Assembly (NCBI RefSeq): GCF_014672835.1 | Contig: NZ_CP060244.1 | Span: 1,095,001 to 1,159,000 of the forward strand | Reading direction: 5' to 3' | From: Entomobacter blattae | GTDB lineage: Bacteria; Pseudomonadota; Alphaproteobacteria; Acetobacterales; Acetobacteraceae | Length of the DNA: 64,000 bases | In this document: positions 10,413-63,560 of the stretch, in pieces | Numbering within the stretch: position 1 is the first letter of the stretch | Layout: the number at the start of each line of letters is the position of its first letter | Program-made: the position numbers and the translations under genes | The notes under the pieces: model-generated | Told to the model about the DNA's origin: nothing | Seen by the model: only the letters and a program-made list of their open reading frames with translations | Databases searched by the model: none

Positions 10413-11141
10413 GGGGGGCACAGAGAAAGCTTATATGCTCTTTAAAAATCATCCTCTCGGGCTGATACCCAAACCAGACTGACTTAAAACGGTATAGGTG
10501 TTGCGTGGGTCTTTCTCACAAAGCTTATGGTTTGTTTGGTTTTTTACGTGTTATAAGTTTTCAGTGGGGTTTACCTGAGCTGAGCGAGTTTTTTAAGCCT
10601 TTGAGGCTTTTGAGGCCTTAAGCCTCAGTGTCTCTTTAAGGTTAAGACCGAGAGAGAGGGAGTGTATTCACGGCTTTCCCTCCCTAGGTGGCGGCCTTAA
10701 AGTGAGCATGGCGTGGAATAGAGTGAATATCAAAGACCGCTCCTAAATTTTAGTAAAACCCATCCCCTTCATTGCTTATTATTGCTTTTCCTTCCTTATT
10801 AGGGATCTGGCTGGGGATCTCCTGACCCAGAATTTGCACTCTTTTTAGGGATTTTTTCACGATTTTTCCTCTTTTAGGTTTTTCTCTTCAGGCTTTCCTC
10901 TTTAGGGGGGGAATAATTTCTAGAGGTTTAAGCCTCTTACTGTAAGAGGAGTGGCCTTATGGTAAGAAATTCGGGTATTTTTTACCTCTCTCATCAAAGC
11001 AAGAGGAGCATTTGATCAGGAGGGGTAAAAACCCAGCCAAACCATATTGCTCTTTTGTATACCTATCTTCCTTCTGTATGCCTGTCTTTTTCATATGAGC
11101 CTTAAAGAAAGCTTCCATTTTTAACCATTTCCATTATTTTG
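10413..11141. other. Gap without recognisable gene
   Basis: About 0.7 kb with no convincing gene in either strand. The DNA contains short T/C-rich, mutually similar words (ttttag, ctttcctc), as in other degenerate gaps of this window. Confidence 0.5.
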
Positions 11142-11211
11142 CCGGGCCGCGCTTGAGTGGCACTGCGATTGAGCCAAAAATCTGAGAAAATCCTTTGGGA
11201 ACTGCCTCTTG
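11142..11211 (+). pseudogene. Partial copy of ettA (70 bp)
   Basis: This stretch matches bases 14372-14442 of the intact ettA gene in this window at about 90 percent, with one deleted base and several substitutions by eye. It starts and stops abruptly inside the source gene (the inter-domain linker up to the second ABC domain). It is a short internal copy, not a remnant of a second full gene. Confidence 0.8.
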
Positions 11212-11237
11212 TAGCGGTGTGTTCATGCTACCAAAAG

Positions 11238-11465
11238 CCTTCGCGCCTTCCCTTCGTGAACGGTAATGGAGGCATCATAAATGGTTTTTAATCCCCCCGG
11301 TGCCGGAATCAATCATGACCCCGGTAGCGCAGCACTCCTCTTCTGTTTGGGACTTCCAACCAGAATCTTCCACGGCTTCTTCTGCAGCGATCCATTTTTT
11401 TCTGGTCTTTAACGGGAATCCATTCAGTTCGTGATGGAACAATAGCCTTCACCACAGCACAAAAT
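11238..11465 (-). pseudogene. Fragment of fabF (3-oxoacyl-ACP synthase II)
   Basis: On the minus strand three frames join to give a FabF-like series: PSRTEWIPVKDQKKMDR, then AAEEAVEDSGWKSQTEEE plus CCATGVMIDSGTGGIK, then KTIYDASITVHEGKARR. This equals the region after the N-terminus of ketosynthase II. One small deletion and one frameshift separate the pieces, so no functional protein can be made. It directly abuts the ettA copy. Confidence 0.8.
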
Positions 11466-11639
11466 ATTATTTCCTCCTTAAGGATTCCTTTCTCCATCCA
11501 TATTTTTAGAACACTCATGCGTAATCTTTATCTTGTCTTCATAACATGATCGTTGTCGTTGCTGTATTGGCCATTGACCGTATTCTTCTTAACCCGCTCA
11601 TGACATGGCCAGCTCTGGTCTTATGACGAGAAGGGCAAA

Positions 11640-11945
11640 CCAAAAACATCACAGGCGGCTATCCAACGACCTGGCTGCTCAATCCACCCAGGCATATGAA
11701 CCCGACCTTGAAGTTTTCGTTGTTCAACCATCGCCTCTAAAGTGATTCGCTCTAGCCCGTCTCCAGCAATCATCACATGCAGGTTAGGGCATAAATACGG
11801 CATGTAAAAGAACATCAAATGCTTTGTTTGTATGGAACCTCCCCAAGGCCAATACAAAAGGAACACCCAAAGGTAAAAAGGGCGGTCTTTCACCATGAGA
11901 AGTAGCCGCATCAACAAAATTGGGTAAGTAAAATTGGATAAGGAA
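11640..11945 (-). pseudogene. Decayed GT4 glycosyltransferase C-domain
   Basis: Minus-strand frames give YLPNFVDAATSHGERPPFLP and VLALGRFHTNK, then after a frameshift LHVMIAGDGLERITLEAMVE and VHMPGWIEQPGRWIAACDVF. These are typical of the nucleotide-sugar domain of GT4 glycosyltransferases. N-domain and C-terminus are missing. Confidence 0.8.
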
Positions 11946-11989
11946 TGCCCATTCTTGCAGGCCAGTTTTAGTGTAGATGCCTTTTTTCT

Positions 11990-12386
11990 ATGCTTGTTTT
12001 TAGGCACTCTGGGGGCACGTTATAGGGATGTCTCTCCCATGATTGCCAGTATCCTCCCAATCCTTTTCTTTATGACCCCGATGATATGGAAACCTGATCT
12101 CATCTATCTTGGGCGACAATATATGCTTCTCAACCCGTTTTTCCCGCTGATAGAAATTATGCGCGCACCTCTTATGGGAGAAATTCCGCGCCTTTCCATT
12201 TGGGTATTTGCTATAGGATATAGCGTAATTATATGGCTGGCAGGTTTCTTTGTATTGACAAAGGTCCGGGCACGACCTGTGAGTTTGCGGGCGGCATTTC
12301 GTATTTCAGAGGAAAGGGGTGCCCTTACCGGGCAGGTTGAACACCCCTTGCAGAGGAACAAGCCTTTCTTGGAGAGCCTTTTATGA
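11990..12386 (+). pseudogene. C-terminal remnant of an ABC-2 polysaccharide export permease (Wzm type)
   Basis: An open frame encodes LGTLGARYRDVSPMIASILP, FFMTPMIWKPDLI and LLNPFFPLIEIMRAPLMGE, characteristic of the last transmembrane helices of ABC-2 permeases that export O-antigen or capsule. The N-terminal half is absent and the tail after the last helix looks unlike the family. Together with the adjacent glycosyltransferase remnant it may mark a lost polysaccharide locus. Confidence 0.75.
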
Positions 12387-18502: not shown

Positions 18503-19812
18503 GTGTTCCCCGCACACGCGGGGATGAACCGAAAATTTATTAGATTTGTATAACAAGGAAGCAGTGTTCCCCGCACACGCGGGGATGAACCGCTTTTGTA
18601 AGCGGCCTAATCCTATCCAAAAGGGTGTTCCCCGCACACGCGGGGATGAACCGGGTGACAAATAAATCCAAAGAGGTCGCCAGATGTGTTCCCCGCACAC
18701 GCGGGGATGAACCGCTGACAGTGGAAGAAGAGTTAACAGGTGCAGGGTGTTCCCCGCACACGCGGGGATGAACCGGGGATACTGTAGACATAAACCCTGA
18801 GCTCAACGTGTTCCCCGCACACGCGGGGATGAACCGGTATCAAAATCTGTTCGGCTAGCCATTACTGCGTGTTCCCCGCACACGCGGGGATGAACCGGGT
18901 TAGCATCACCGCCTCCTCTCACGTATGGCGTGTTCCCCGCACACGCGGGGATGAACCGTTTTTTCTGCCCCTCCGGGATTTCCACCGTGAGTGTTCCCCG
19001 CACACGCGGGGATGAACCGAAGAAATCTTAAGTACAATAGCTATAGCTAAAGTGTTCCCCGCACACGCGGGGATGAACCGGTTTCTGCCTCACGTAACAA
19101 TGCCCTGTCCTGGTGTTCCCCGCACACGCGGGGATGAACCGCTGCGGTAGTAGGTAGGAGCGCCCAAAAATCCGTGTTCCCCGCACACGCGGGGATGAAC
19201 CGTGTCCAGGCGTTGAGCAGGTTGTATAAATCCTGTGTTCCCCGCACACGCGGGGATGAACCGGGTAAAATAGTCAGGGTGACCTATGATGGGGAGTGTT
19301 CCCCGCACACGCGGGGATGAACCGACCTAATCATTATTATCCGTCCTTGCCCCACTGTGTTCCCCGCACACGCGGGGATGAACCGGTTCGCAAGGATGCA
19401 GCCGCTGCGTGGGAGCCGTGTTCCCCGCACACGCGGGGATGAACCGAGGTAATGTTTGATCTGATGCTAGATTGTGGCGTGTTCCCCGCACACGCGGGGA
19501 TGAACCGACGACCCCTGGTGGAGCACACACTACCCGCCGGTGTTCCCCGCACACGCGGGGATGAACCGCAGCTTATCTGGCCCATTATGTTCACTCCCAA
19601 GTGTTCCCCGCACACGCGGGGATGAACCGCCCAAACGGGTGTAAAATCTGCTGTTACAAACGTGTTCCCCGCACACGCGGGGATGAACCGGACGCCGAAG
19701 AACCACCCACCACCAAAACCGTGTGTTCCCCGCACACGCGGGGATGAACCAACGAGACAGTAAATCCACCCGAAATATCGGCCGTGTTCCCCGCACACGC
19801 GGGGATGAATTT
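18503..19812 (+). CRISPR. Type I-E style CRISPR array, 22 repeats, 21 spacers
   Basis: A 29-bp repeat (starts GTGTTCCCCGC, ends GCGGGGATGAACCG, with inner hairpin CCCCGC/GCGGGG) recurs every 61 bp exactly, from 18503 to 19784. All spacers are 32 bp and different. The first 20 repeats are identical by eye, the 21st has one changed last base, and the 22nd (19784) is altered at its 3' end, as expected for the leader-distal terminal repeat. The 3' ATGAACCG would give the 8-nt crRNA handle of Cas6e. No cas genes lie in the window, so the effector must be elsewhere. Apparent proteins in the array (HPRVCGEH-like repeats) are artefacts. Confidence 0.98.
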
Positions 19813-20273
19813 TTTATGCTATTGTTTGGTGAGTTTCAGAGAGGAGAATAAGGGGAAATTTTCTGAGTGGTATAACGCTTCCATCCAACCCTGGGGACGG
19901 ACTCTGGGGAGGCAAAAAAGCACTTCTCTTATTGTTGGGTTGGTATCAGATTCAAAGTTGGGTTGGCTTCTGGTTTAAAAAAGGAGCCAATCGGACAGGT
20001 TGCCCCCTTATAGGAGATGATGCGGGCTATAGAAGAGATATTTTTTATATGAAGTCTATAAAGGGAAGGGCTTTAAGGAAAACAGCACTGGTTTCTTGGG
20101 TTTTGTTAATTGACCGTGTTGTTCATTGAGGAGGTTCTTTAGGGGGTTTATGTCTACAATTTTGGTAGAAGCCAAAGCTTAACACCATGGTGGCCATAGC
20201 GGTATAGAGCACGGCAGGGGCGTAAGCTTAGCCTTCCTCTATGGGGATAGGTGAGTGTTCCGGAAGATCAGCC
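19813..20273. other. Gap without recognisable gene
   Basis: About 460 bp between the array end and the terminator at 20274. Open frames exist but look non-coding and match no family I recognise. Confidence 0.45.
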
Positions 20274-32294: not shown

Positions 32295-32405
32295 TCATAA
32301 AGAGATCTCTTCAATAATCTCTCGCGTCTCTCTGACATGATGATCGATAAACATCTCGATGCCATGGTTCTTAAGGTGAGAGATCAGGTCACGGATTTCC
32401 CCTAG
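32295..32405 (-). pseudogene. Fragment of lptB (LPS export ATPase)
   Basis: Minus strand reads GEIRDLISHLKNHGIEMFID, continuing HHVRETREIIEEI and a stop. This is the D-loop/H-loop end of LptB (normally ITDHNVRETL; here one residue is missing). Walker motifs are absent. A scrap of an essential gene whose intact copy must be elsewhere. Confidence 0.82.
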
Positions 32406-32563
32406 AGCGAGAGTCTCTTGGCAAGAGAGGATTGATTTTTTTTAGGGGTGTTATCAGGCAGAAGGGGATGGGATGGTTTTTTGGTTTTTTCTCAAGGTGC
32501 AAATGGCCGATCATCAAGGATATTGGTGACCGCGAAAGGGTGGGTCATATAGGGGTTGCCCTT

Positions 32564-32770
32564 GTGTTCCCCGCACACGCGGGGATGAACCGTGGAAATT
32601 ACATCGTTTTTTACGTTATTAGAGGTGTTCCCCGCACACGCGGGGATGAACCGCCCTGCATCGCCCACCCCCATATTCTCCTGTAGTGTTCCTCGCACAC
32701 GCGGGGATGAACCGACCGTGACGGTAAGGTATTCCTGCGCCGGAACGTGTTCCCCGCACACGCGGGGAAA
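32564..32770 (+). CRISPR. Second small CRISPR array, 4 repeats, 3 spacers
   Basis: The same 29-bp repeat as the main array occurs at 32564, 32625, 32686 (one base changed, CCTCGC) and 32747 (3' end lost after GCGGGG), period 61, with 32-bp spacers. The upstream DNA does not resemble the leader of the first array, so it probably gains no new spacers. No cas genes are adjacent. Confidence 0.95.
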
Positions 32771-45867: not shown

Positions 45868-46559
45868 GGGTAACCCCAAACAGAAATCTTGTTGCTTCTC
45901 TTGTTTGTGCCCAATTTGTGTCCAAGAGGGTTAAACGAGATGTTAAAGGAGAGTGTTAAATATTGTTACCAAGGGTGTTAAACAGGGATGTTAAAAAAGG
46001 GTATTCACAAGGGTATTTAATAAGGGCGTTAAAAACGTTTCTTGTCCTCTTTGTCCTGACCTGGGCTGTCAGTTCTTGACGGTCCACTTCCCCCGGATCT
46101 TTTGCGCCCCCAATCGCGAGGAGTGGGCGCTTGACTCTGATATGTTTCTCCCCCCCCCTGCCTGCCGGATGTAATACGACCACTAGCTGTGTGCAAAATG
46201 GCATTGGCACCCAATAAACAAAACGGAGACAGTTTGTTATTCGGAGCAATGGGTCCAAAGCTTGCAAAATGTCTTTGAAGGTTTTTTGTTTTTCCACCTG
46301 TTCGATTATAGTCTGTTCGGTCATAAGGAAAGTTTTTCTTTGTCCGATTCAAAGGCTTTTACGTGCCTTCGGAGAGTATCTGTTTTCTCCTGAAGAGGCT
46401 TGGCTGTCGAAATAGCTATACTCTGAAAAATGAGGCTGTGAAAACTTAGGAGAGAGAATCTGTGTAAGCCGGGTAAGATTGTGCTTTCATGGGGGTTTTT
46501 ATCTCTTCTTCATATTAGAACAACAATTTCCTATCGCTCAGATTTTAATAGGTGATCTA
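45868..46559. other. Gap with GTTAAA-type repeats
   Basis: Behind the 446-aa gene, GTTAAA-containing 12-18 bp units recur at 45928-46035. Minus-strand frames at 46029-46352 look biased but match nothing I recognise. Confidence 0.45.
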
Positions 46560-46695
46560 TTGCGTTCAGAGAGAAAGCAGGGAACCGAAATTGGCAAACA
46601 AGCTAAGATAATTGCCAATTGAAGATGTTTTCTTAATCTCTGGTATAGATGATGGGGACTTGGTTCCCGATGAAGTGATCATCAAGATGCTTTCA
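46560..46695 (+). pseudogene. Fragment of adk (adenylate kinase)
   Basis: Frames read LRSERKQGTEIGKQAKII and, after a shift and a stop, DDGDLVPDEVIIKML. This matches the GTEIGxxAK...GDLVPDEVVI region of adenylate kinase between the P-loop and the AMP-binding helix. P-loop and lid are missing. Not functional. Confidence 0.72.
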
Positions 46696-47617
46696 AACGT
46701 TTAGGAGGTAAAAACCAGAAAAAATTCTTTAGGCACAACCAGAAATTCGAAAATTGTGGGGTTCCCGTTCGCGAAGAGGCCTGTGCCATAACTCCCCCAA
46801 TTCAACTTCTCCAGCTCAATCTCCCATGTCCAAATCGTGGAGGTTTTGCCCAAGTCATGGAGTTTCAAGGATATGGGGGGTTATTAAGGATCGTTTTAAG
46901 ACGTACTCCCTTTTAAGACGTCATTCCCTTTAAGACATAGGTAGATCACCACGTTGATAGGTCGGGTGTGAAAACGCAGTAATGTGTGAAGCTAACCGGC
47001 TCCAAGTAAAAATGTCAAGCAGCCTTTGGATGAGGGCAGCTTTATTATTCCCCTCCATGTAATAACCTCCATGCAAGAACAAGCCTTACGGTGTTATGCC
47101 GGTAGCCGATATGTCATGTCCTCTGATACGCCGAGAAATAGAATACGCTGAGAAATGGCGGAATCAGATCCCTTGATGATGCTCTTCAGTATGTACCTAC
47201 TCAGCGTAAAGATATTTTAGACACCTCCTCCCCCTTTAAGAGGCACAGGCCCACTTTAGGGAAGATTTTGCGGGCTTTGTAAGAGGGAAAGCTTATGGGA
47301 AAAGACCAAAGCTCCCTTTACACGCTGTAAGGAGAGATGCACAATTCTTTGATGAGATGAAAGGCAAAACCAGGGTATATTTGAGAAAGAACCTTAATCG
47401 TTGGTTGCAATAATTCCGTTAAAGCGACAGCGCTTTCAAGCTCATACCAGGCATTTTTACGCACGCAATTTGCGAGTCTGGTATGAATGGAAAATTTAAG
47501 AAAACTTTCAAGCTCGGGGTGGTATAAAGTTCGTACAGATGAGGTTGGATATAAACGCCCCCCCTTAAACCCAACAGGTTGAATAATCCCATGATGAGAT
47601 GGGGGTGAGGAATACTC
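46696..47617. other. Gap without recognisable gene
   Basis: About 0.9 kb. Several frames are interrupted at short intervals. A scrap reading LDDALQYVPTQRKDI near 47175 could be another gene fragment, source unknown. Confidence 0.4.
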
Positions 47618-49165
47618 CTAACGAGAGGGTCTTACGGTTTGCGTAAGGCTTGCGGCCAGCTGGCGGGCTATGCGGCGATAAGCCTGGCCGGCTGGGGAAT
47701 CCGGGGCCTTGGCAACAAGGGGGGTGCCGGCATCGGCATGGCTGCGGATCTCAACCACCAGGGGGATTTCTCCCAAAAAGGGAACATCCTGTTTTTCGGC
47801 CTCCTGGCGCGCACCGCCATGGCCAAAGAGCTCGCTATTTTCTCCACAATGTGGGCAAGTAAAATAGGCCATATTTTCTATAACCCCTAGAATGGGCACA
47901 TTGGTTTTCTCAAACATACGAATGGCCCGTCGGGCATCAATAAGGGCGATATCTTGCGGGGTGGAAACGATAACGGCTCCCCCCAGCTGAATTTTCTGGG
48001 CCAGGGTGAGCTGGGCATCGCCTGTGCCGGGGGGCATATCGATGACCAGCACATCCAGCGCGCCCCAATTGACATCGCCTAAAAATTGGGTAATAGCCCC
48101 CATCACCATAGGCCCCCGCCAGACCAGGGCTTCATCGGGGTTAACCAGCAGCCCGATCGACATAGCCTTAACCCCCCATGCTTCTATGGGTTGAAGAATG
48201 CCTGCTTTAGCTTCGGGTTTGGTATGAAGCCCTAGCATATGGGCTACCGAAGGGCCGTAAACATCGGCATCCATAAGCCCTGTCTTCAGCCCTTCCATGC
48301 CTAAAGCTACGGCCAGATTAACCGCGGTAGACGATTTGCCAACTCCACCTTTGCCAGAGGCTACCGCAATAACCGTTTTAACATGGGGCAGGAGCGGGCC
48401 TTGAGGTTTGGTGGGGCGGGGGCCATTAAGCCGCATGGGCCTGTGTTCAGCATGGGGCGAAATATGCCGGCTGACAAGCTGGGGCGGAGGGGCAGAAGAG
48501 ATCCCCTGATTTTGGTCCCCTTGATGTTGGGTTTGCGGATTTTGGGGCCCCAAGTTTTGAGTCTCCAGATTTTGAGCTTCCATGTTTTGAACCCCCAGTT
48601 TTTTGGTTCCCATATTTTGGGCTCCTATGTTTTGGCCTTCCTGGCTTTGGACGTTTGGGGGCTGAGCTGAAGGGGCTTGATGGTGAGCAGGCTGTTGGGT
48701 TGGCGTGGCGGGAAAGCCCCCGCCCTGCGGAGGGGTTTGCGGCATATGGCCCCCCAGGCTATGGCTATGACCCTGTATATGACTCTGTGTATGACTCTGG
48801 GGGTTTCCCTTGGGGGCCGTAATGTTTTGAGGGGGCGGGGCTTGGCTTGGTGCAGGGGGAGAGAGGGGGTCTTGGGAGGCGGTGCTGCCTGAGCGGCTTG
48901 CGGTCAGAATCACCTGAACCCGTTCAAGCTCTAGAACCGATTGCATAATATGCTCAATACTGGGAATAAGCCCTTCCAGCATCGGGCCTTGGCGCGCTGT
49001 GCAGCGAAGGACGATGACAGCCTTTTTCCCCTCTATCTTCAGGCTTTCAAAAAGTGGGCTTTGGGGGAGGGACTTCTTGCTGAACGGGTCTATAAACCCT
49101 TGCAGAAGGGTGAGGCCAGTGGCGTGAAGAGGGTTGGGTGCGGTGGGGTCAGGCATATCGGGCAT
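47618..49165 (-). CDS. mrp: Mrp/ApbC-family Fe-S cluster carrier ATPase with low-complexity linker, 515 aa
   Basis: P-loop NTPase that carries and transfers 4Fe-4S clusters in the cytosol. Residues 1-~85 are the MIP18/DUF59-type domain, and residues ~262-515 the ATPase: VASGKGGVGKSSTAVNLAVA (deviant Walker A), DADVYGPSVAHMLG, DMPPGTGDAQLTL, and the cluster-binding CPHC in NMAYFTCPHCGENSELFG. Between them ~165 residues are Gln/Pro/Asn-rich and repetitive (NMEAQNLETQNLGPQN), far longer than usual linkers; normal Mrp has ~350-380 aa. Single gene. Confidence 0.92.
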   Translation of the reverse strand: MPDMPDPTAPNPLHATGLTLLQGFIDPFSKKSLPQSPLFESLKIEGKKAVIVLRCTARQGPMLEGLIPSIEHIMQSVLELERVQVILTASRSGSTASQDPLSPPAPSQAPPPQNITAPKGNPQSHTQSHIQGHSHSLGGHMPQTPPQGGGFPATPTQQPAHHQAPSAQPPNVQSQEGQNIGAQNMGTKKLGVQNMEAQNLETQNLGPQNPQTQHQGDQNQGISSAPPPQLVSRHISPHAEHRPMRLNGPRPTKPQGPLLPHVKTVIAVASGKGGVGKSSTAVNLAVALGMEGLKTGLMDADVYGPSVAHMLGLHTKPEAKAGILQPIEAWGVKAMSIGLLVNPDEALVWRGPMVMGAITQFLGDVNWGALDVLVIDMPPGTGDAQLTLAQKIQLGGAVIVSTPQDIALIDARRAIRMFEKTNVPILGVIENMAYFTCPHCGENSELFGHGGARQEAEKQDVPFLGEIPLVVEIRSHADAGTPLVAKAPDSPAGQAYRRIARQLAASLTQTVRPSR

Positions 49166-49780
49166 GAGGGGAAGGGTTCACTTTATTCTGGTTGTTCTCG
49201 CGTATCAAAAATCTGTTCTCTTAGAAAATCTGTCTCTCAGAAAACTCGTATTCAGACTGTACCATAAACCAGACTGTACCATAAAAGGGGGAATATACGA
49301 AAGCAAAAGAGGGGAATATACGAAAGCTGAATATGGATTACAGTTTAGCGATTACGGTTTAGTGTTTTGTTTTTGATAAGGGAAGGTAAGAAGGGGCAGG
49401 GATGCCACAAAGCCTTTCCAAAGGGGTTTTTCTGGTGCCACAGCTATTTTTCGTGAAGGGTGCGTATCCATAGCGCCTGTTCAGGATGTCGGTAGTAAGG
49501 ATATCGACAGCAAGGATGTCGGTAGACATGGTGTTGGTAGAATGGATCGAATGGGATTGAAGAGATCTGGGGGAAAGGAGCACCGCCAAAACCGTACAGC
49601 CCAAAGCCATACTCCCAAAGATAGGGCCCAAAAACAGGAACAGAGACACAATGCCTCTAAGAGGTCATGCCTAAAGAAACAATGCCGCGAAATAACGCTC
49701 TGAGGAATAGAGACCAGAGACAAAGGTGCAGAGACAAAGGCCCCGAGCAAAATATTGGTAGAAGGTTTGTGGTGCGGGGT
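49166..49780. other. Gap with short repeats
   Basis: Contains duplicated ACTGTACCATAAA words (49257-49282), GGGGAATATACGAAAG (49289-49328) and GGATGTCGGTAG units (49486-49532). No gene. Confidence 0.5.
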
Positions 49781-50382
49781 ACTCATTTACCCGCCAGCAC
49801 TTCTTCCAAAATTACCCTTATCCTTGATGCAGGGATTGCCTTTGGCTCTGGTGAGCACGGCTCCACCCGCGGTTGCCTTCGTGCATTAGAAAGTATAGCC
49901 TGGCGCAAACCTCAACGGATTATTTTGCAAAGAGCAAGGTTGAACCAAAGTCTAGACTTACAGAATTTCGTATTTCTAAAGATGCTGTTATTTCCGTGGG
50001 AGAAACCCTGACCGCTGCATATTTTGTTATTGGTCAGCGAGTTGATGTAACGGGAACAAGTGAGGGAAAAGGCTTTGCTGGAGCGGTAAAAAGATGGAAC
50101 TTTAGGGGGTTGGAAGCGACTCATAGTGTTTCCATAGATATGGGGTGTGGTTCTGTCATATTGGCAATGGTTGTCAGCGCACTTTTAAAAAAGCCTGTTA
50201 TTGGGGTAGATATTGAGCCGTGGTCTGTGCGTGTTGCCAATACCAATGCCCAAATGAACCATCTAGGCCAACAAGTTAAGTTCTTTTTTGCAATGGGTGG
50301 AATACCCCCAGCTGACCTCCTATAAACCTTTTGATCTCGTTTTCGCCAACATCCTGGCCCGCCCCTGAAGAGGCCAGAGAAG
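49781..50382 (+). pseudogene. prmA (ribosomal protein L11 methyltransferase) remnant split by an rplC fragment
   Basis: Before the insert the frame reads [20 protein letters not shown] plus [13 protein letters not shown], the PrmA segment before the SAM site. After it comes [40 protein letters not shown], and, in another frame, FDLVFANILARP, all PrmA in the right order. In real PrmA, ILDMG follows directly on RRI. The N-terminal domain is missing, so this is non-functional. Confidence 0.85.
49921..50136 (+). pseudogene. Internal fragment of rplC (ribosomal protein L3) inside the prmA remnant
   Basis: One open frame reads [60 protein letters not shown] and ATHSVS, an uninterrupted middle part of L3. 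It joins the second prmA part in frame (VSI followed by DMGCG) but the first part out of frame. No internal stop, so the copy may be young. Confidence 0.88.
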
Positions 50383-50611: not shown

Positions 50612-52798
50612 GTGCCTGCTCCTAATGGAAACACCCCAGAAAACAAGCTGGGCAGCCAGAGCGCTACTCCAGAGTCAGCCCCTAAACCAATGGGGGGGCC
50701 AATAGAGGGGAGCGTGCCCTTTTCAGAATTACCTCCCCCATCAGATCCTTCCTCAGACCCCTCCTCATTCCCCTCTTCTTCTACGAGTTTTGCTAACGCC
50801 ACGGTTTCTTCTCATGAAGGGCGTGTCTCCATAATGTTGCCGCCCGGGGTGGCGGCAGAAGCGGAATCTTCGAAAGAAGAAGGCACCGCTAAAATTGTAC
50901 ACCCTAACGCCTTCCCTCCAAAAACAGAGCTCCAAGAGACAACAACGCAAGGAATGGGATCACAAGAAACAGGGTCACAAGAAATCGGGACACAAGGAAT
51001 TGGGTTACGAGGAATGGGATCACAAGGAATAGAGGCAGCAGAGATAACGACGCGAGAACCAGGGGTGCAGGAAACGCCCGCTCAGGAAACCTTATCCCCA
51101 AAAACAGCCTCTCAAGAATCCTCCCATCAAGAAACGTTCTCCCAGGAAAGAGAACCTCAGGGAATAGGCGTTCCGCAAACAGAAGCCCAAAAAGCGGGAG
51201 CCCCACAAATAGGAATTCAACAAACTGGCATTCAACAAACAGCAGCCCAAGGAATGGGAGGTCAGGAAACAGTAGCCCATGAAATAACGACTCAGAAAAT
51301 AACAACCCGTGAAATAACAACTCAGGAAACAGAAGGCCAGGAAAAGGGGTTTTCGGCATTATCAGAACCTCCAGGGCTCGTTCACTCTTCTGTACAAGGG
51401 ACTTCTCCCTTGTCCCAAGGCATCACCCAGAACCCTACTCAAGGATCCTCCAAAAGTGAGGCTTCAAAGGCAGACCAGGGGGCAAATTCCAGTGTTCCTC
51501 AAGGATCGGCGCAGGAAACACCTCACAGCCAGAAAACATCCCAGAGCCAGGAAATACCCCATAGCTCTGCCCAAACGGGTTTTTCTTCTGCTCTTCCATC
51601 AGGGCGGGAGCCTGCCTCTCCAGGGGGGGGCACACCCCCTCAAGCGGGCTCAGCCCCTCAAAAAGAGCGCTCACCTCGTGATCATAGGGTGGATGCCCTG
51701 AGAGGGGTGGCCCTAACCATGATGTTTGTTGACCATATTCCCCAAAATCTGTTGAGCAAATTTACCATGCGCAATGTGGGGTTTGCAGATGCGGCAGAAA
51801 TTTTTGTGATTCTGGCGGGCTTTGCCTCATGGTTGGCTTATGGGCGGGGTATTATCAGGCAAGGGTGGCCTCAGATATTGCTGCGCTTGTTGCGCCGCTG
51901 TGTGACCCTTTATATTTATCAGCTCTGTATGGCTGTTGGCAGTATTGTGATTATTTTGCTCTGGCGGCGTTTTACACCCGTGCCGGTGGATTTTCTTGAG
52001 CCGGAGCTTGCCTATAATTTTTGGTCGTGGTGGCGGCTGGTGTTGTTGGAGGCCTTGCCAAGTAACTTGAATATTTTGCCGCTCTATATTGTGCTATTGG
52101 CTCTTTTCCCCCTTATTTTTCTGGGGATTCAATGGAATGTTGGCGCCACTTTGGCCATTAGTGGAGCTATTTGGCTTTATGCCAACATTAACCCTGCTTT
52201 TAATTTTACAAACTGGCTCGACCCCGATGGCTGGTATTTTGACCCCGTAGCCTGGCAGTTCCTATTTGTGCTGGGGGTGGTTTCAGCCTGGTATACCACC
52301 CCTCGTGGGGGGAGCTTTCCACGGCGGCATTGGCTGGTGGTGCTGTGCTGGGGGTATCTGGTTTTCTCGCTCTTGCAGGTTTTCCCCTGGCAAAATTGGG
52401 GCTTGGGCGATATGCGGCTTCTCACCGACTTGGCTTCTCCTTCTAAAACTGTGCTGGCGCCTTTTAGGCTTTTGGACGTGTTAGCCATTTTTTATTTGGT
52501 GCAGAGCTCGCAATGGGCCAGTAGACTTTCTGAAAGTCGGGCTGGGCAAATTCTAGCCTTGTATGGCCGTCATTCGCTTGAGGTATTCTCAGCTGGTACT
52601 ATTCTTGATCTGCTGGGCCGGCTGTTGTTTGTCACCTTCGATGATGGCTGGGTCCTTCAGATTGGGGTTAACGTGGTTGGTTTGGGGCTTTTATATGGCC
52701 TGGCCAAGATATTGGATGGCTACCGTAAAAAACAAAAAGAACAGCTTAAGGCTAAAACGGCAGAAAGGGCAGCCTCAAAGGCAGCCTCTTCTTCCTAG
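50612..52798 (+). CDS. opgC: OpgC-family membrane protein with ~350-residue low-complexity N-terminus, 728 aa
   Basis: Residues ~355-710 form the OpgC domain, an inner-membrane acyltransferase-like protein of about ten helices that succinylates periplasmic glucans or related polymers: HRVDALRGVALTMMFVDHIP, GFADAAEIFVILAGFASWLA, NILPLYIVLLALFPLIFLGI, and GRHSLEVFSAGTILDLLGRL. The first ~350 residues are Gln/Glu/Thr/Ser-rich, made of 9-12-residue degenerate repeats (for example TGSQEIGTQGIGLRGMGSQG), and would lie on the cytosolic side. The GTG start is uncertain; a start close to residue 350 is possible but no strong site is seen. Confidence 0.85.
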   Translation: MPAPNGNTPENKLGSQSATPESAPKPMGGPIEGSVPFSELPPPSDPSSDPSSFPSSSTSFANATVSSHEGRVSIMLPPGVAAEAESSKEEGTAKIVHPNAFPPKTELQETTTQGMGSQETGSQEIGTQGIGLRGMGSQGIEAAEITTREPGVQETPAQETLSPKTASQESSHQETFSQEREPQGIGVPQTEAQKAGAPQIGIQQTGIQQTAAQGMGGQETVAHEITTQKITTREITTQETEGQEKGFSALSEPPGLVHSSVQGTSPLSQGITQNPTQGSSKSEASKADQGANSSVPQGSAQETPHSQKTSQSQEIPHSSAQTGFSSALPSGREPASPGGGTPPQAGSAPQKERSPRDHRVDALRGVALTMMFVDHIPQNLLSKFTMRNVGFADAAEIFVILAGFASWLAYGRGIIRQGWPQILLRLLRRCVTLYIYQLCMAVGSIVIILLWRRFTPVPVDFLEPELAYNFWSWWRLVLLEALPSNLNILPLYIVLLALFPLIFLGIQWNVGATLAISGAIWLYANINPAFNFTNWLDPDGWYFDPVAWQFLFVLGVVSAWYTTPRGGSFPRRHWLVVLCWGYLVFSLLQVFPWQNWGLGDMRLLTDLASPSKTVLAPFRLLDVLAIFYLVQSSQWASRLSESRAGQILALYGRHSLEVFSAGTILDLLGRLLFVTFDDGWVLQIGVNVVGLGLLYGLAKILDGYRKKQKEQLKAKTAERAASKAASSS

Positions 52799-52999: not shown

Positions 53000-53192
53000 T
53001 TATACTGGAATAAGACCAATAGGAGCATCCTCGGGCCTGCAACAGCTGGCATAGAGCGCTTACCTATGTTCACCGTCAATTCCATACCCAAGGTTGCGCC
53101 TTTATCCAAGGTGCAAATAACCAAATCTGGGTTCATAACTTCGATATCATGACCTGCCTGGATCTGAGAGGCCTTAACTTCCCCCGGGCCTA
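53000..53192 (-). pseudogene. Fragment of rpoA (RNA polymerase alpha subunit)
   Basis: Minus strand gives [40 protein letters not shown] and NIGK, then after degradation and a shift [11 protein letters not shown] and a stop. This is the N-terminal domain of RpoA. An essential gene, so the intact copy must be elsewhere. Confidence 0.88.
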
Positions 53193-53269
53193 CTGCTGTT
53201 TCTGGTTTGTCCCTACAATTTTGGCTTTTTCTCCTACGGGCCCCCATTGTGGTGGCGGGCCCAGAGTTT

Positions 53270-53372: not shown

Positions 53373-53445
53373 AGAATCAGGTTTTTATAGAAAAAAGTCC
53401 CAGGAGGGGAGAAATGCCAGATCAGAAAAGCCAAGAGAACGTTTC

Positions 53446-53535
53446 AAAACCAATTTCTTCTATAGAGTCAATCGTTGCTCCCAGAACCATGATTTCGGCG
53501 ATCGCCGGAGTAGCAGCCTTGAATTTATGAGGACG
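53446..53535 (-). pseudogene. Fragment of sufS-type cysteine desulfurase
   Basis: Minus strand reads PHKFKAATPAIAEIMVLGAT plus IDSIEEIGFE, which fits the P.RFEAGTPAIAEAIGLGAA region of SufS. Only about 30 codons remain. Confidence 0.65.
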
Positions 53536-54031
53536 ATCTGCCCAAGAGGACTATTTGCCCAAGTCATGTATTCAAAACTCACAGAAAAAATTATGTCCTC
53601 TTCCCCCATAAAAGTGGGAAGCTTTTAGAATGATCAGGCTCATGAAACGAGCAGGAGAAGACAAACCAACAGAGCCTCTTAAATAGCACGGCTCACCAAA
53701 GCCCCTCAAGAGGAGGAATGGTTCAAGAGGGGGGAGAATAAGGTTGGTAGAGTGAAAAAAGCACATCATAGCTTGAATGGCTCGAGAGAGAGGAGAATAA
53801 GGGTACAACGCGTCCGCTCAACTAAGAGCCTAGTTAAGAGCCCAGTTAAGAGTTCAGTGAAGAGCTATAGCGAAAGGGGCCTTTCGGTTTCTGCGGGTTT
53901 GAGGGAGTGTGTCTTTTAAGCATTGGGTGTGATAAAAATATTTATTTCATTCTAGAAGCTTTTGATCTGTGGTAGGATAAAACCTATTTTCTCCAGAGCC
54001 GTTACGGTTTTTAATTCTATAAAGGGTTGGC
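53536..54031. other. Gap upstream of the HtrA gene
   Basis: Contains AAGAGCCTAGTTAAGAGCCC repeats (53822-53865) and a more AT-rich part at 53930-54000 that may hold the htrA promoter. No gene recognised. Confidence 0.45.
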
Positions 54032-55897: not shown

Positions 55898-55959
55898 TCG
55901 AGTGATACCACATAGTACAAGTGACACCATATTATAGTATGCACCATATATACTGATTT

Positions 55960-56100
55960 GGGCTTTCTCGAAGACAGGAGATTCTTTCATGGTGAGACGC
56001 AGGTAAAGTGTAATAACCAAGATAAGCAAGCTTCCTACAAAAGGGATACGCCAATAACCACCAGAAACCACAACTTCAACAGTCTTAAGGACTACAACAT
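55960..56100 (-). pseudogene. Fragment of an MFS transporter
   Basis: Minus strand gives GGYWRIPFVGSLLILVITLY followed by LRLTMKESPVFEKAQ. WRIPF...LY.R....ESP.FEK is the end of helix 6 of metabolite:H+ symporters. The rest is lost. Confidence 0.7.
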
Positions 56101-56673
56101 GAAGGACAGTGCGGGATGAAGGCGAGCCTGATATACGGGAATTTTCAAAACGTTCGTTCCGCCAGAACCCCTACAATGGTTCCATTAAGGACGAACAAAT
56201 TGTAGATCTTCGCCAATGTGCCGCTCAATTGTGCGGCTGGCGTGCTGAGCACCCCAATTTTTTACAATATCCCTCACAAAAAAGAAGGGGTTTCTTCTAT
56301 ATGTTGTCATGGTAGCCCTTTTCAGCCATAACGAGGAGCAGGGGGCCTGAGCAGCAGCCTTTCTAAGAGGGGGGCTAATAGGATGAAAGAGGAGCCCCAG
56401 GGAGCATAAGAGAGCAAAAGAGGGCAAAACCAGGCGTAATTGAGACGGATCGCCCTGGTAGGGTAGAAGAGCATCCGCGGAAAATATCTTCGGAAATATG
56501 TTCAGAGTATCTGAGGCTTGGGGAATGGGCTCGTAAAAAGAGCTGTTGGAGCGGGTTTAGGGCTTGGCCTTATGTGATTAGACCTTATGTTATGAGAAGA
56601 GAGGCCTTAATGTGAGAATGGGGCCAGTATTAAGGCCTACTTAATTAAGGCATACTTGTTTTTTTGAGGTCAA
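56101..56673. other. Gap without recognisable gene
   Basis: A minus-strand stretch at 56220-56330 (NPFFFVRDIVKNWGAQHASR) looks like a scrap, not identified. Repeated AAGAG/AGGGG words at 56390-56420. The promoter of the FUSC gene probably lies in the AT-rich end (56580-56670). Confidence 0.4.
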
Positions 56674-59375: not shown

Positions 59376-60150
59376 TTTGAAATAGGGCAGGGCTTGCCTT
59401 GGAATAGGATAGGGTTTGACCAGGGTCTTTCATAAGAACGATTTACTTGGTCTTGAAGCTTTCCTGTTTCCTGAAGCTTTCTTTGTTTATAGGCTATAAT
59501 TCTTACCGAAAAAAGAACCAGGCAGATAAATGGAAAAATATAAAAAAGCTCTAGAAACAACATGTTATCAGTTTCTGTGGATAACTTTTGTAGAAAAAAC
59601 AGAGAACTATTTTATTTATGGGGATATTTTTTGTCCGTAAAAATGGCGTGGGAGATAAATTTTAAAAAATCTTTATAAAACAATAGTTTAATTAAAAATC
59701 TTTCCCCTGTTTTTTCTCTGTGGCGTCTGGAATCCTTGAGGGAAAAGAAAGAAGAGCATTCCAGAGCTGTGGATAACCCTGGAGATAGTCTTAAAATCAG
59801 GTCATGTTTCTTGGAGGTGTTCCCGCTTGCTCTCCTGCCTGAAAGGGGGCTCCTGACAAGGGGGTCGTACAAGGGGCTGTTGGAAAACCCTTTACAGAAT
59901 AATTTTAGCGTGGCCCTCCTTTTTGTTCTCCTAACCTTCTACATGGTTATGGGTTCACATTCTTAAGTCTTTCATTCCAAAAATGTTTCTGTTTCATCTC
60001 TTCTTTACTCTACTTTGTTTTACTGTCGAAGAGGCACTCCCGCTTCCACCAAATTCATACTGGCCTATATAACCCAAAACCACAAAAATGCCCATGTCAA
60101 CTCACATTGTGGAAGGGGTAGAGCGTCTGATTATGGAACATGAAGGGGCT
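59376..60150. other. AT-rich gap with two perfect DnaA boxes
   Basis: Two TGTGGATAA (reverse TTATCCACA) sites at 59576-59584 and 59768-59776 flank ~190 bp that are strikingly AT-rich (59590-59700). No gene recognised. This could be a DnaA-binding locus or part of an origin, but two boxes are few for an oriC and gene orientation does not flip here. Confidence 0.35.
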
Positions 60151-62703: not shown

Positions 62704-63395
62704 GTATAATCACAAAATAACTATAAAAAAAAGTATAATTTGTTTTTTTACGATAAATTTAATTGGTCACCTTATCTTTTTCCCATAAAAACTTTTATGG
62801 CTTCTGCCCTTTGGAACCTTCTTTTCTGGAGGACATAGAGCCCCGCAGGGTCTACTCGGTTAAAAGCACTTCTGACATGACCCGTAAGGACAAGACGTTT
62901 CAGAAACCCATGAGGAGAATGACCGGTAATAGGGGCTGGTGCTTCAGGGCTCATAACACCAGAGTTTTTTGGTCAATCTTTTGAATGGCCAGTAAAGGAA
63001 TGACCAGTAAAGGAATGGCTAGTAAAGGGTTGGGATCGTTTTATGATTTTACCCGTAAACGGAAAAGAGGGCAGGAGGAGAGGTTTTGTTGCGCTGGGAA
63101 GGTCAGTGGGATGCCAGCTATTAGTAAAATGGTTGCTCCAAATACTTCCGTATCAGAATGTTTCAAAGCATGATCTACAAAGTCTATGGCCACACGAAAA
63201 CGTTCATTATAGCGGGGATACGAGCTGTAAATGAACAAAGGCAGGTTGTTACAGATATTTTATGAGTGATCAGCCCTCATTTATAAGCTCCCGACTAAGG
63301 ATGGTGGGCCTTTCTATCTGCCGTGCCCCAGGGCGCTGTGCCCAGAGTGCTGTGCCTAGACCGCTGTGCCCAGACCGCTGTGCCCAGACCGCCGT
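62704..63395. other. Gap with short tandem repeats and possible scraps
   Basis: AT-rich at 62704-62765 (porin promoter likely). At 62983-63030 AATGGCCAGTAAAGG recurs three to four times; at 63335-63395 CTGTGCCCAGACCG recurs four times. A minus-strand frame at 63170-63238 (SYPRYNERFRVAIDFVDHAL) recalls the C-terminus of LysR-type regulators but is too short to be sure. Confidence 0.5.
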
Positions 63396-63560
63396 ATCCA
63401 GAGCGTAAAAGCTGAACTGATCCGTAATAATGTTCCTGCTTCTGCTATCGATATCCATGGTTATGGTGAATCTCATCCTCTGGTTCCAACAGGTCCGAAT
63501 ACCCGTGAACCTCAGAACCGTTGCGTAGAAATTATCCTTAATGGCCTTTATCGTTCCCTA
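63396..63560 (+). pseudogene. Fragment of an OmpA-family C-terminal domain
   Basis: The frame reads VKAELIRNNVPASAIDIHGY, GESHPLVPTGPNTREPQNRC and VEIIL, the peptidoglycan-binding OmpA domain end (normally NRRVEI, here an Arg has become Cys). It is preceded by tandem repeats instead of the rest of the gene. Confidence 0.85.

What the first reader, a model, noticed from the sequence alone, without database searches (positions are those of the whole stretch)
49781..50382. rplC fragment inserted precisely into prmA
A 216-bp internal, still open piece of ribosomal protein L3 sits between the two halves of the PrmA SAM-binding region, with only a few codons of prmA lost. Left junction is out of frame, right junction in frame. 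No transposase or target duplication is visible.
Basis: partly seen in the sequence, partly recalled or inferred. Interest (0 to 1): 0.66.

Follow-up and report, generated by a model that had tools for sequence, protein, structure and literature searches.

The report
Gene scraps pasted between bacterial genes
The odd piece of a ribosomal-protein gene inside a piece of another gene is one of what look like several hundred short gene scraps that this bacterium has copied into the spaces between its genes, probably while mending broken DNA.

Summary
The rplC piece inside prmA sequence is real, but it does not interrupt the cell's prmA: intact prmA and rplC lie elsewhere on the same 2.70-Mb chromosome. 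The window holds a 415-bp internal scrap of prmA with a ~210-bp scrap of rplC inside it; no prmA base is missing and ATT/ATA flanks the insert. The prmA arms are ~99% identical to prmA, the insert 91% to rplC and with some older bases, so the insert is old and the arms were probably gene-converted later. The chimera is one of many: in 46% of the genome 117 short copies of parts of 94 genes lie in predicted spacers, with sharp edges. Some are flanked by 10-21-bp direct repeats, above shuffled controls. Equal 400-kb samples gave 12 here, 1 in G063, and in G024 no short pair at 80% identity or more. Best reading: scraps of the cell's own DNA are captured at staggered double-strand breaks. Ku was not detected; the joining pathway and the source of the scraps (DNA or RNA) are open.

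The parts
49742..49924 (+). left piece of a truncated prmA copy (L11 methyltransferase)
   Evidence: 182/183 identical to intact prmA at G000:C1:1650335-1650517
49922..50135 (+). inserted internal piece of rplC (ribosomal protein L3), codons 68-139
   Evidence: 194/214 identical to G000:C1:61221-61434
50134..50366 (+). right piece of the truncated prmA copy; 6 of its 7 mismatches lie in the first 42 bp beside the insert; two 1-bp gaps lie further right
   Evidence: 226/235 identical to G000:C1:1650103-1650337
49922..49924 (+). left copy of the 3-bp repeat, ATT (right copy ATA at 50134-50136)
   Evidence: junction alignment
46052..46211 (+). copied scrap of an N-formylglutamate amidohydrolase gene
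   Evidence: 91% to G000:C1:1262153-1262311; donor ORF, Pfam
46516..46700 (+). copied scrap of the adenylate kinase gene (74% identity, old)
   Evidence: G000:C1:50798-50952
46700..46766 (-). scrap of the end of a lactonase-family gene and the bases after it, abutting the adk scrap
   Evidence: 94% to G000:C1:2195354-2195420
46811..47043 (+). scrap of the 3' end and downstream of an iron-containing alcohol dehydrogenase gene, interrupted by a 91-bp insert
   Evidence: pieces 46811-46909 and 47001-47043 match G000:C1:2126090-2125948 with a 3-bp overlap
46940..46999 (+). 60-bp scrap of the 3' region of 23S rRNA inside the dehydrogenase scrap
   Evidence: 95% to four rRNA loci; LSU rRNA assigned by Rfam on donor locus L139
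47078..47217 (+). scrap of a TonB-dependent receptor gene
   Evidence: 77% to G000:C1:2296294-2296412
47360..47592 (-). scrap of an IucA/IucC-family gene flanked by the direct repeat TGATGAGATG
   Evidence: 96% to G000:C1:2290174-2290406; repeat; Pfam
53003..53200 (-). scrap of rpoA (RNA polymerase alpha)
   Evidence: 93% to G000:C1:48652-48853
53438..53618 (-). scrap of a class-V aminotransferase gene
   Evidence: 76% to G000:C1:1868251-1868414
55951..56077 (-). scrap of an MFS transporter gene
   Evidence: 96% to G000:C1:2421488-2421614
56159..56282 (-). scrap of a DUF445 gene
   Evidence: 84% to G000:C1:1862946-1863068
60027..60144 (-). scrap of an HTH_25 gene
   Evidence: 82% to G000:C1:2182002-2182126
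63123..63206 (-). scrap of a phosphoenolpyruvate carboxylase-like gene
   Evidence: 95% to G000:C1:1859348-1859431
63389..63539 (+). scrap of an OmpA-family gene
   Evidence: 95% to G000:C1:2628228-2628378
11077..12274 (.). abutting mosaic: one 593-bp scrap (donor 2005568-2006160) interrupted by scraps from 1109372, 405820 and 1826496
   Evidence: six pieces; neighbours abut, overlap by 3 bp or lie 22 bp apart

Best explanation
The locus is a nested pair of dead gene scraps. SHOWN: a copy of a 415-bp internal piece of prmA lies in the spacer between an Mrp-family ATPase gene and an opgC-like gene; a ~210-bp piece of rplC sits inside it with no loss of prmA sequence; both donors are intact; 117 short copies of parts of 94 other predicted genes lie in spacers in the 46% of the genome sampled (extrapolated from the evenly spaced part, about 455 genome-wide); edges are sharp; a minority are flanked by direct repeats of about 10-21 bp, others by 0-3 bp or with losses. 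INFERRED: double-strand breaks with variable overhangs are closed by capturing a stray fragment of the cell's own nucleic acid; fill-in of the overhangs makes the direct repeats, blunt or trimmed ends make the rest. INFERRED for this locus: the rplC capture is old, and later recombination with intact prmA refreshed the two prmA arms but not the insert and the 42 bp to its right.
For: Intact donors. 117 gene-to-spacer copies, 94 donor genes, median 161 bp and 88% identity in 1.25 Mb; 36 in the 760 kb of evenly spaced stretches. Equal 400-kb samples: own 12, G063 1, G024 four short pairs, all 66-70%. Identity 6-25 bp outside the edges is 0.253 for 46 copies. Flanking repeats: 8 of 111 at score >=7 vs 0.70% in shuffles; 6 of 23 among copies >=95% identical vs 1 of 23 at their donor edges; nested insertions 4 of 21 at score >=10 vs 0.3%, visible. 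Direct and inverted placement 81 and 80 for pairs more than 20 kb apart. Outer arms 2 changes in 369 sites as tested (374 by recount) vs 20/214 in the insert (P 1e-7) and 6/42 beside it (P 2e-5); at 7 of 20 insert sites, strongly at three, more relatives share the insert's base than that of the cell's rplC.
Against: This event has only a 3-bp repeat, no better than chance. In the nested set 16 of 21 events score below 7. Over all copies the recipient edges (8 of 109) exceed the donor edges (3 of 109) only slightly, and copies at 90-95% identity show none of 23. Right edges are slightly T-rich and G-poor, which I did not explain. Ku is not found above cutoff, so the joining enzyme is unknown. 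The gene-conversion step rests on uneven divergence, with tract limits set by eye. The gene caller is crude (65% coding, 57% with an earlier setting) and may call some real genes spacers. About 39% of the sample (window, L206, L207 and the third batch) was placed with the finding or known donors in mind.
Confidence: 0.66

Rival explanations
1. Replication template switching: a nascent strand leaves its template, copies 40-400 bp elsewhere and returns slightly upstream (making the repeat) or downstream (making a loss).
For: Donors are retained; return positions vary from -18 to +65 bp; at the prmA/rplC junctions 3 and 2 bases are shared; mosaics abut directly.
Against: Junctions without shared bases or with unmatched bases occur (rec 1018884: 5 bp unmatched; rec 1082115: none shared on the left); repeats of 10-21 bp need a long backward jump each time.
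Confidence: 0.22
2. RNA-derived capture: fragments are reverse-transcribed from abundant RNAs by a resident reverse transcriptase and then integrated, as in processed pseudogenes.
For: The stretch holding the ribosomal operon gives 13 of 117 donors from 1.8% of predicted coding bases (P 3e-7; 6 of 46 at >=90% identity, P 2e-4); 23S rRNA scraps occur; two reverse transcriptases are encoded.
Against: That stretch was fetched because it held known donors, and conserved genes stay recognisable longer. By my own rough estimate rRNA is far less enriched than its share of cellular RNA. Gene-spacer and spacer-spacer pairs (117 and 48) are close to the 65:35 coding split, though spacer-spacer pairs include copies of copies and missed genes. 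The reverse transcriptases match defence types (retron I-C-like, split; Drt2), not mobile elements.
Confidence: 0.1
3. Uptake of short environmental DNA with double illegitimate recombination (recalled for Acinetobacter baylyi).
For: Short fragments, random orientation, no homology beyond the edges.
Against: Insertion with target duplication, or without loss, rather than replacement of a target segment; scraps match this genome's own genes; competence genes were not tested.
Confidence: 0.08
4. Ordinary decay of full-length duplicated or foreign genes, leaving fragments.
For: Many scraps are old (pairs down to about 65-75% identity).
Against: Scraps >=90% identical end abruptly (1 of 92 flanks at 60% identity or more) and nest in each other, some with direct repeats.
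Confidence: 0.03
5. Assembly or sequencing artefact.
For: Some copies are 99-100% identical.
Against: Most pairs are 79-94% identical (20th to 80th percentile); one 2.70-Mb contig, 99.98% complete.
Confidence: 0.02

Closest known systems
Intron gain at staggered double-strand breaks in Daphnia (passages of review PMC3443670)
   Same: Short insert of other DNA at a staggered break, flanked by short direct repeats (43% of gained introns in that review)
   Different: Eukaryote with NHEJ; here a bacterium with no detected Ku, inserts are pieces of the cell's own genes in spacers, and fewer show repeats. The review also notes that in Drosophila such repeats were no more frequent than background
Insertions captured at double-strand breaks in yeast, Dna2-deficient or stationary cells (passages of preprint PMC10802722)
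   Same: Fragments of the cell's own genome, including rDNA and R-loop-prone regions, joined into breaks; one insertion can hold several donors
   Different: Attributed there to NHEJ (very rare in pol4 mutants); short experiments, not a genome-wide fossil record
Genome instability of Portiera whitefly symbionts (passages of PMC7821994)
   Same: Expanded spacers, coding density 60-70%, and repeats in a bacterium
   Different: Linked there to dnaQ loss; here dnaQ is present above cutoff; the passages I saw do not describe gene scraps with target repeats
Small variable segments in bacterial species (passages of PMC2884548)
   Same: Short segments ascribed to illegitimate recombination, some 10% flanked by direct repeats
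   Different: Seen between strains, over 80% of loci neither insertion nor deletion; not copies of the cell's own genes accumulated in spacers

Membership tests
Insertions captured at staggered double-strand breaks | Direct repeats of variable length flank inserts more often than chance | tested here: met
   8/111 vs 0.70% null; 6/23 of the youngest vs 1/23 donor edges, but 8/109 vs 3/109 over all; 4/21 nested at score >=10 vs 0.3%
Insertions captured at staggered double-strand breaks | This particular prmA/rplC insertion carries such a repeat | tested here: inconclusive
   only 3 bp, ATT/ATA
Insertions captured at staggered double-strand breaks | An end-joining machinery joins the fragment | tested here: inconclusive
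   Ku below cutoff, E 0.29; other joining proteins not tested
Transposon or IS element | Common end sequence and fixed-length target duplication | tested here: not met
   no common end sequence in 46 copies, only a weak T-rich/G-poor bias at the right edge; repeats vary from none to about 21 bp
Processed pseudogene (RNA-templated copy) | Reverse transcriptase able to make cDNA of cellular RNA | tested here: inconclusive
   two defence-type reverse transcriptases; activity unknown
dnaQ-loss genome instability (Portiera type) | dnaQ absent or broken | tested here: not met
   TIGR01406 match of 254 bits, over cutoff, no stops inside
dnaQ-loss genome instability (Portiera type) | Expanded spacers, low coding density | tested here: met
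   65% coding vs 90% (G024) and 85% (G063) by the same crude caller
Short-patch double illegitimate recombination (SPDIR) | Short segment replaces target bases at microhomologies | tested here: not met
   insertion without loss at this locus and target duplication at others; the definition is recalled: one search lists papers that mention SPDIR, and in the one I looked into no passage came up

The most novel reading that the evidence does not exclude
A bacterium has a lasting, Ku-independent habit of capturing short copies of its own abundant transcripts or transcribed DNA at chromosome breaks, so that its spacers have become a fossil bed of hundreds of gene scraps: a bacterial counterpart of processed pseudogenes and break-filling inserts, possibly fed by a defence-type reverse transcriptase.
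Probability: 0.12. Interest if true: 0.9.

Novelty: new variant of a known kind. Interest (0 to 1): 0.62.

Why it matters
Bacterial spacers are usually small and kept clean. This chromosome seems to record a long series of fragment captures, with donors, targets and empty sites readable inside one genome because scraps nest in one another. That makes a question that is hard to study in bacteria, how breaks are patched without Ku, directly testable, and it shows a steady source of raw sequence and chimeric open frames next to genes.

Tried and rejected
Older, deeply diverged prmA sequence beyond the two arms: my eye suggested a C-terminal match, but alignment against shuffles gave nothing (89 and 44 of 300 shuffles as good on the right, 289 and 299 of 300 on the left), so the copy ends sharply. 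A 41-bp rplC-like hit at 1218697 was not pursued. Two further partial rplC matches at 1076835 and 427115 were not analysed beyond their hits. Loss of proofreading (dnaQ) as the cause: the gene is present. Ku-type end joining: not found. Mobile reverse transcriptase: the two found match retron I-C-like and Drt2 models. An end motif: none beyond a weak right-edge bias. A 16S motif search for rRNA scraps: no hit in the held stretches. Rfam on window 45900-47700 gave no match, presumably because the 60-bp piece is too short. OpgC as query in named genomes found no relative; rplC places the organism among Acetobacteraceae. I suspected Entomobacter blattae and looked for it in the library, but nothing I saw identifies the genome.

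Literature: eight topical searches and one by organism name. Their listings, some cut to the best 8-20 titles, showed no paper on dispersed gene scraps with target repeats in a bacterium. Most subscription journals are not held, so absence from print is not shown. Papers were seen as passages only.

Sampling and dropped rows: of 60 stretches of this genome, 38 are evenly spaced (apart from the neighbourhood of the window); 2 of the second batch and the 20 of the third were placed partly with known donors in mind, and the window itself holds 20 of the 117 copies. The unbiased counts are those. CRISPR-like repeats were removed from this genome's counts, not from the controls. Pairs over 600 bp (15) were set aside and so are absent. 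Copies with more than three partners (6) were left out. G024's four pairs were not classed by gene context. For one search, three relatives' loci and 11 shorter ones were left out; the 95 used may include the same genome twice. The 21 nested events are a hand-picked set from the rows: rows in the paralogous repeats at 355 kb and 1387 kb, two long element-like pairs (345437, 1631613), a local repeat at 137539 and overlapping duplicate rows were dropped; 415642 appears only, and the 17-bp gap at 1091339 may be a tandem duplication.

None of these moved my odds.

Full report
The observation. Window 49742-50366 reads prmA, rplC, prmA. Compared with the cell's own genome (G000, one contig of 2,701,842 bases, 99.98% complete; the window is C1:1095001-1159000), the left prmA piece is 182/183 and the right one 226/235 identical to an intact prmA at C1:1649924-1650817, and the middle is 194/214 identical to rplC at C1:61221-61434. 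Both parent genes are intact (298 aa and 227 aa) and Pfam confirms them. In the donor the two prmA pieces overlap by three bases, so nothing was lost, and ATT/ATA stands at the two ends of the insert. The homology stops abruptly at both outer ends of the prmA copy; alignment beyond them is no better than shuffles.

Age. The outer prmA stretches differ from intact prmA at 2 of 369 sites as tested (374 by recount; two 1-bp gaps not counted), the insert differs from rplC at 20 of 214 (P 1e-7), and the 42 bp of prmA to its right at 6 of 42 (P 2e-5) (tract limits set by eye). A younger insert should not be more diverged than its older target unless the target was refreshed, or unless the insert came from an already decayed copy. 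Of the 20 insert differences, at 13 more relatives share the base of the cell's rplC and at 7 more share the insert's base; at three of these (sites 15, 93, 95) 87, 95 and 65 of 95 relatives do. So the insert left rplC before the cell's rplC took its present form, and the arms were most likely converted by intact prmA. Eighteen of 20 changes are transitions, and codon positions 1, 2 and 3 carry 7, 3 and 10: little constraint. Expression was not tested.

Not a lineage feature. Of 39 relatives searched with rplC, 35 have one match and 4 none; only this genome has extra partial matches. In 59 relatives none of the matches listed for the 1-kb query crosses a junction. By rplC the organism belongs with the Acetobacteraceae (best named matches Acetobacter and Komagataeibacter, 77-81%); none of the sampled relatives shares its genus. 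I could not name it.

It is one of many. A 20-kb query around the finding matched 27 other places in the genome, 66-99% identical and mostly 60-250 bp long (only 40 of 72 candidates were scored); a second 20-kb query gave fewer, besides CRISPR-like repeats. Many spacer matches are pieces of ordinary genes: adenylate kinase, N-formylglutamate amidohydrolase, a TonB receptor, an IucA/IucC protein, rpoA, a class-V aminotransferase, an MFS transporter, DUF445, OmpA, PEP carboxylase. Two matches at 54.9-55.2 kb are gene-to-gene matches among protease genes and not scraps. I then fetched 60 stretches; with the window they make 1,251,500 bases, 46.3%. In these, 201 short pairs (<=600 bp, E <=1e-8, CRISPR-like repeats removed) were found: 117 gene-to-spacer, 48 spacer-to-spacer, 19 gene-to-gene and 17 on gene edges. 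The 117 come from 94 genes, median 161 bp and 88% identity. The 38 evenly spaced stretches alone (760 kb) hold 36, which extrapolates to about 455 if pairs scale with the square of the fraction sampled. Equal 400-kb samples: 12 here; 1, below 80% identity, in G063, the relative with the most similar rplC (83%), where 42 of 50 short pairs are spacer-to-spacer and look like repeat families; and in G024 four short pairs, all at 66-70% and not classed further. Predicted coding density is 65% here, 85% in G063 and 90% in G024; the caller is crude.

Anatomy of the copies. Copies >=90% identical end sharply: identity 6-25 bp outside is 0.253, the random level. Edges show no common end sequence; the right edge is somewhat T-rich and G-poor (n 46, not tested). 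For pairs more than 20 kb apart, direct and inverted placements number 81 and 80. Direct repeats at recipient edges reach score 7 in 8 of 111 copies against 0.70% in shuffles. By identity class: 6 of 23 copies at >=95% against 1 of 23 at donor edges, 0 of 23 at 90-95%, 2 of 35 at 85-90%, 0 of 28 below; over all, 8 of 109 against 3 of 109 at donor edges. In the window, the IucA/IucC scrap at 47360-47592 is flanked by TGATGAGATG.

Nested events give empty sites. In 21 hand-picked cases one scrap is interrupted by other sequence. Repeats reach score 10 in 4 of 21 (null 0.3%), score 7 in 5 (2.8%) and score 5 in 11 (16%). Examples: a 174-bp insert, 97% identical to 66468-66644, flanked by TTGCTGTAGG; a 77-bp insert containing 71 bp from 1019944-1020014, flanked by a 13-bp repeat; a 47-bp insert with a 16-bp overlap. 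Others overlap by 0-3 bp or lose up to 65 bp; the finding itself belongs to this group. Window 11077-12274 is an abutting mosaic: one 593-bp scrap broken by scraps from three other places.

How it most likely works. Variable repeats, random orientation, no common end sequence, retained donors and abutting mosaics fit capture of loose fragments at double-strand breaks with variable overhangs; fill-in gives the repeat. Shown: the structure. Inferred: breaks, fill-in and joining. Template switching is the main rival, since it also retains donors and can produce repeats. Ku was not found (best E 0.29, below cutoff), so the joiner is unknown. dnaQ, whose loss accompanies the swollen spacers of Portiera (PMC7821994, passages), is present.

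Source of the fragments. The stretch with the ribosomal operon supplies 13 of 117 donors from 1.8% of predicted coding bases (P 3e-7), and 6 of 46 at >=90% identity (P 2e-4). That stretch was fetched because it held known donors, and conserved genes stay recognisable longer, so this is a lead only. 23S rRNA pieces occur: 60 bp in the window at 46940-46999, one at about 2007297-2007753, and weaker ones at 1290197 and 1017335. The two reverse transcriptases match a split retron I-C-like protein and Drt2, both defence types. An RNA route cannot be excluded.

Known relatives. The closest parallels seen are eukaryotic: introns gained at staggered breaks in Daphnia, 43% with direct repeats, though the same review reports no excess over background in Drosophila (PMC3443670, passages), and captured fragments at breaks in yeast (PMC10802722, passages). 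In bacteria, short variable segments, some 10% flanked by direct repeats, have been described between strains (PMC2884548, passages). It works like break capture; membership is met for the repeats as a population, open for the joining enzyme, and inconclusive for this single event.

Verdict. The chimera alone is a modest curiosity; the genome-wide bed of gene scraps is unusual for a bacterium and well supported, with a plausible but unproven mechanism.

Noticed in passing
window 18503-19819 and 32564-32768; G000:C1:1075096-1076521: CRISPR-like arrays with a ~61-bp period; the stretch just before the second array (32392-32563) has a 99% copy at 1074323-1074495, near the third array.
   Followed up: no
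window 47618-49165 (minus) and 50612-52798 (plus): The Mrp-type ATPase and OpgC-like proteins carry long Gln/Gly-rich degenerate repeat tracts in their N-terminal parts.
   Followed up: no
L317 (G000:C1:919411-923052): Retron I-C-like RT-Toprim protein split into two reading frames, apparently broken; a Drt2-type reverse transcriptase lies at about C1:1324245-1325867.
   Followed up: partly
G000:C1:2639313-2639928: Exact tandem repeats of 60-bp period inside a predicted gene.
   Followed up: no
G063 stretches L342, L346, L352, L357: The relative with the most similar rplC has dispersed spacer repeats (about 45-890 bp, 75-99% identical), unlike the gene scraps here.
   Followed up: no
L005 (G000:C1:1217197-1220237), 1366-1765: Short tandem repeat read as GLGAWGL-type units on one strand and SPKPQAP-type units on the other.
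   Followed up: no
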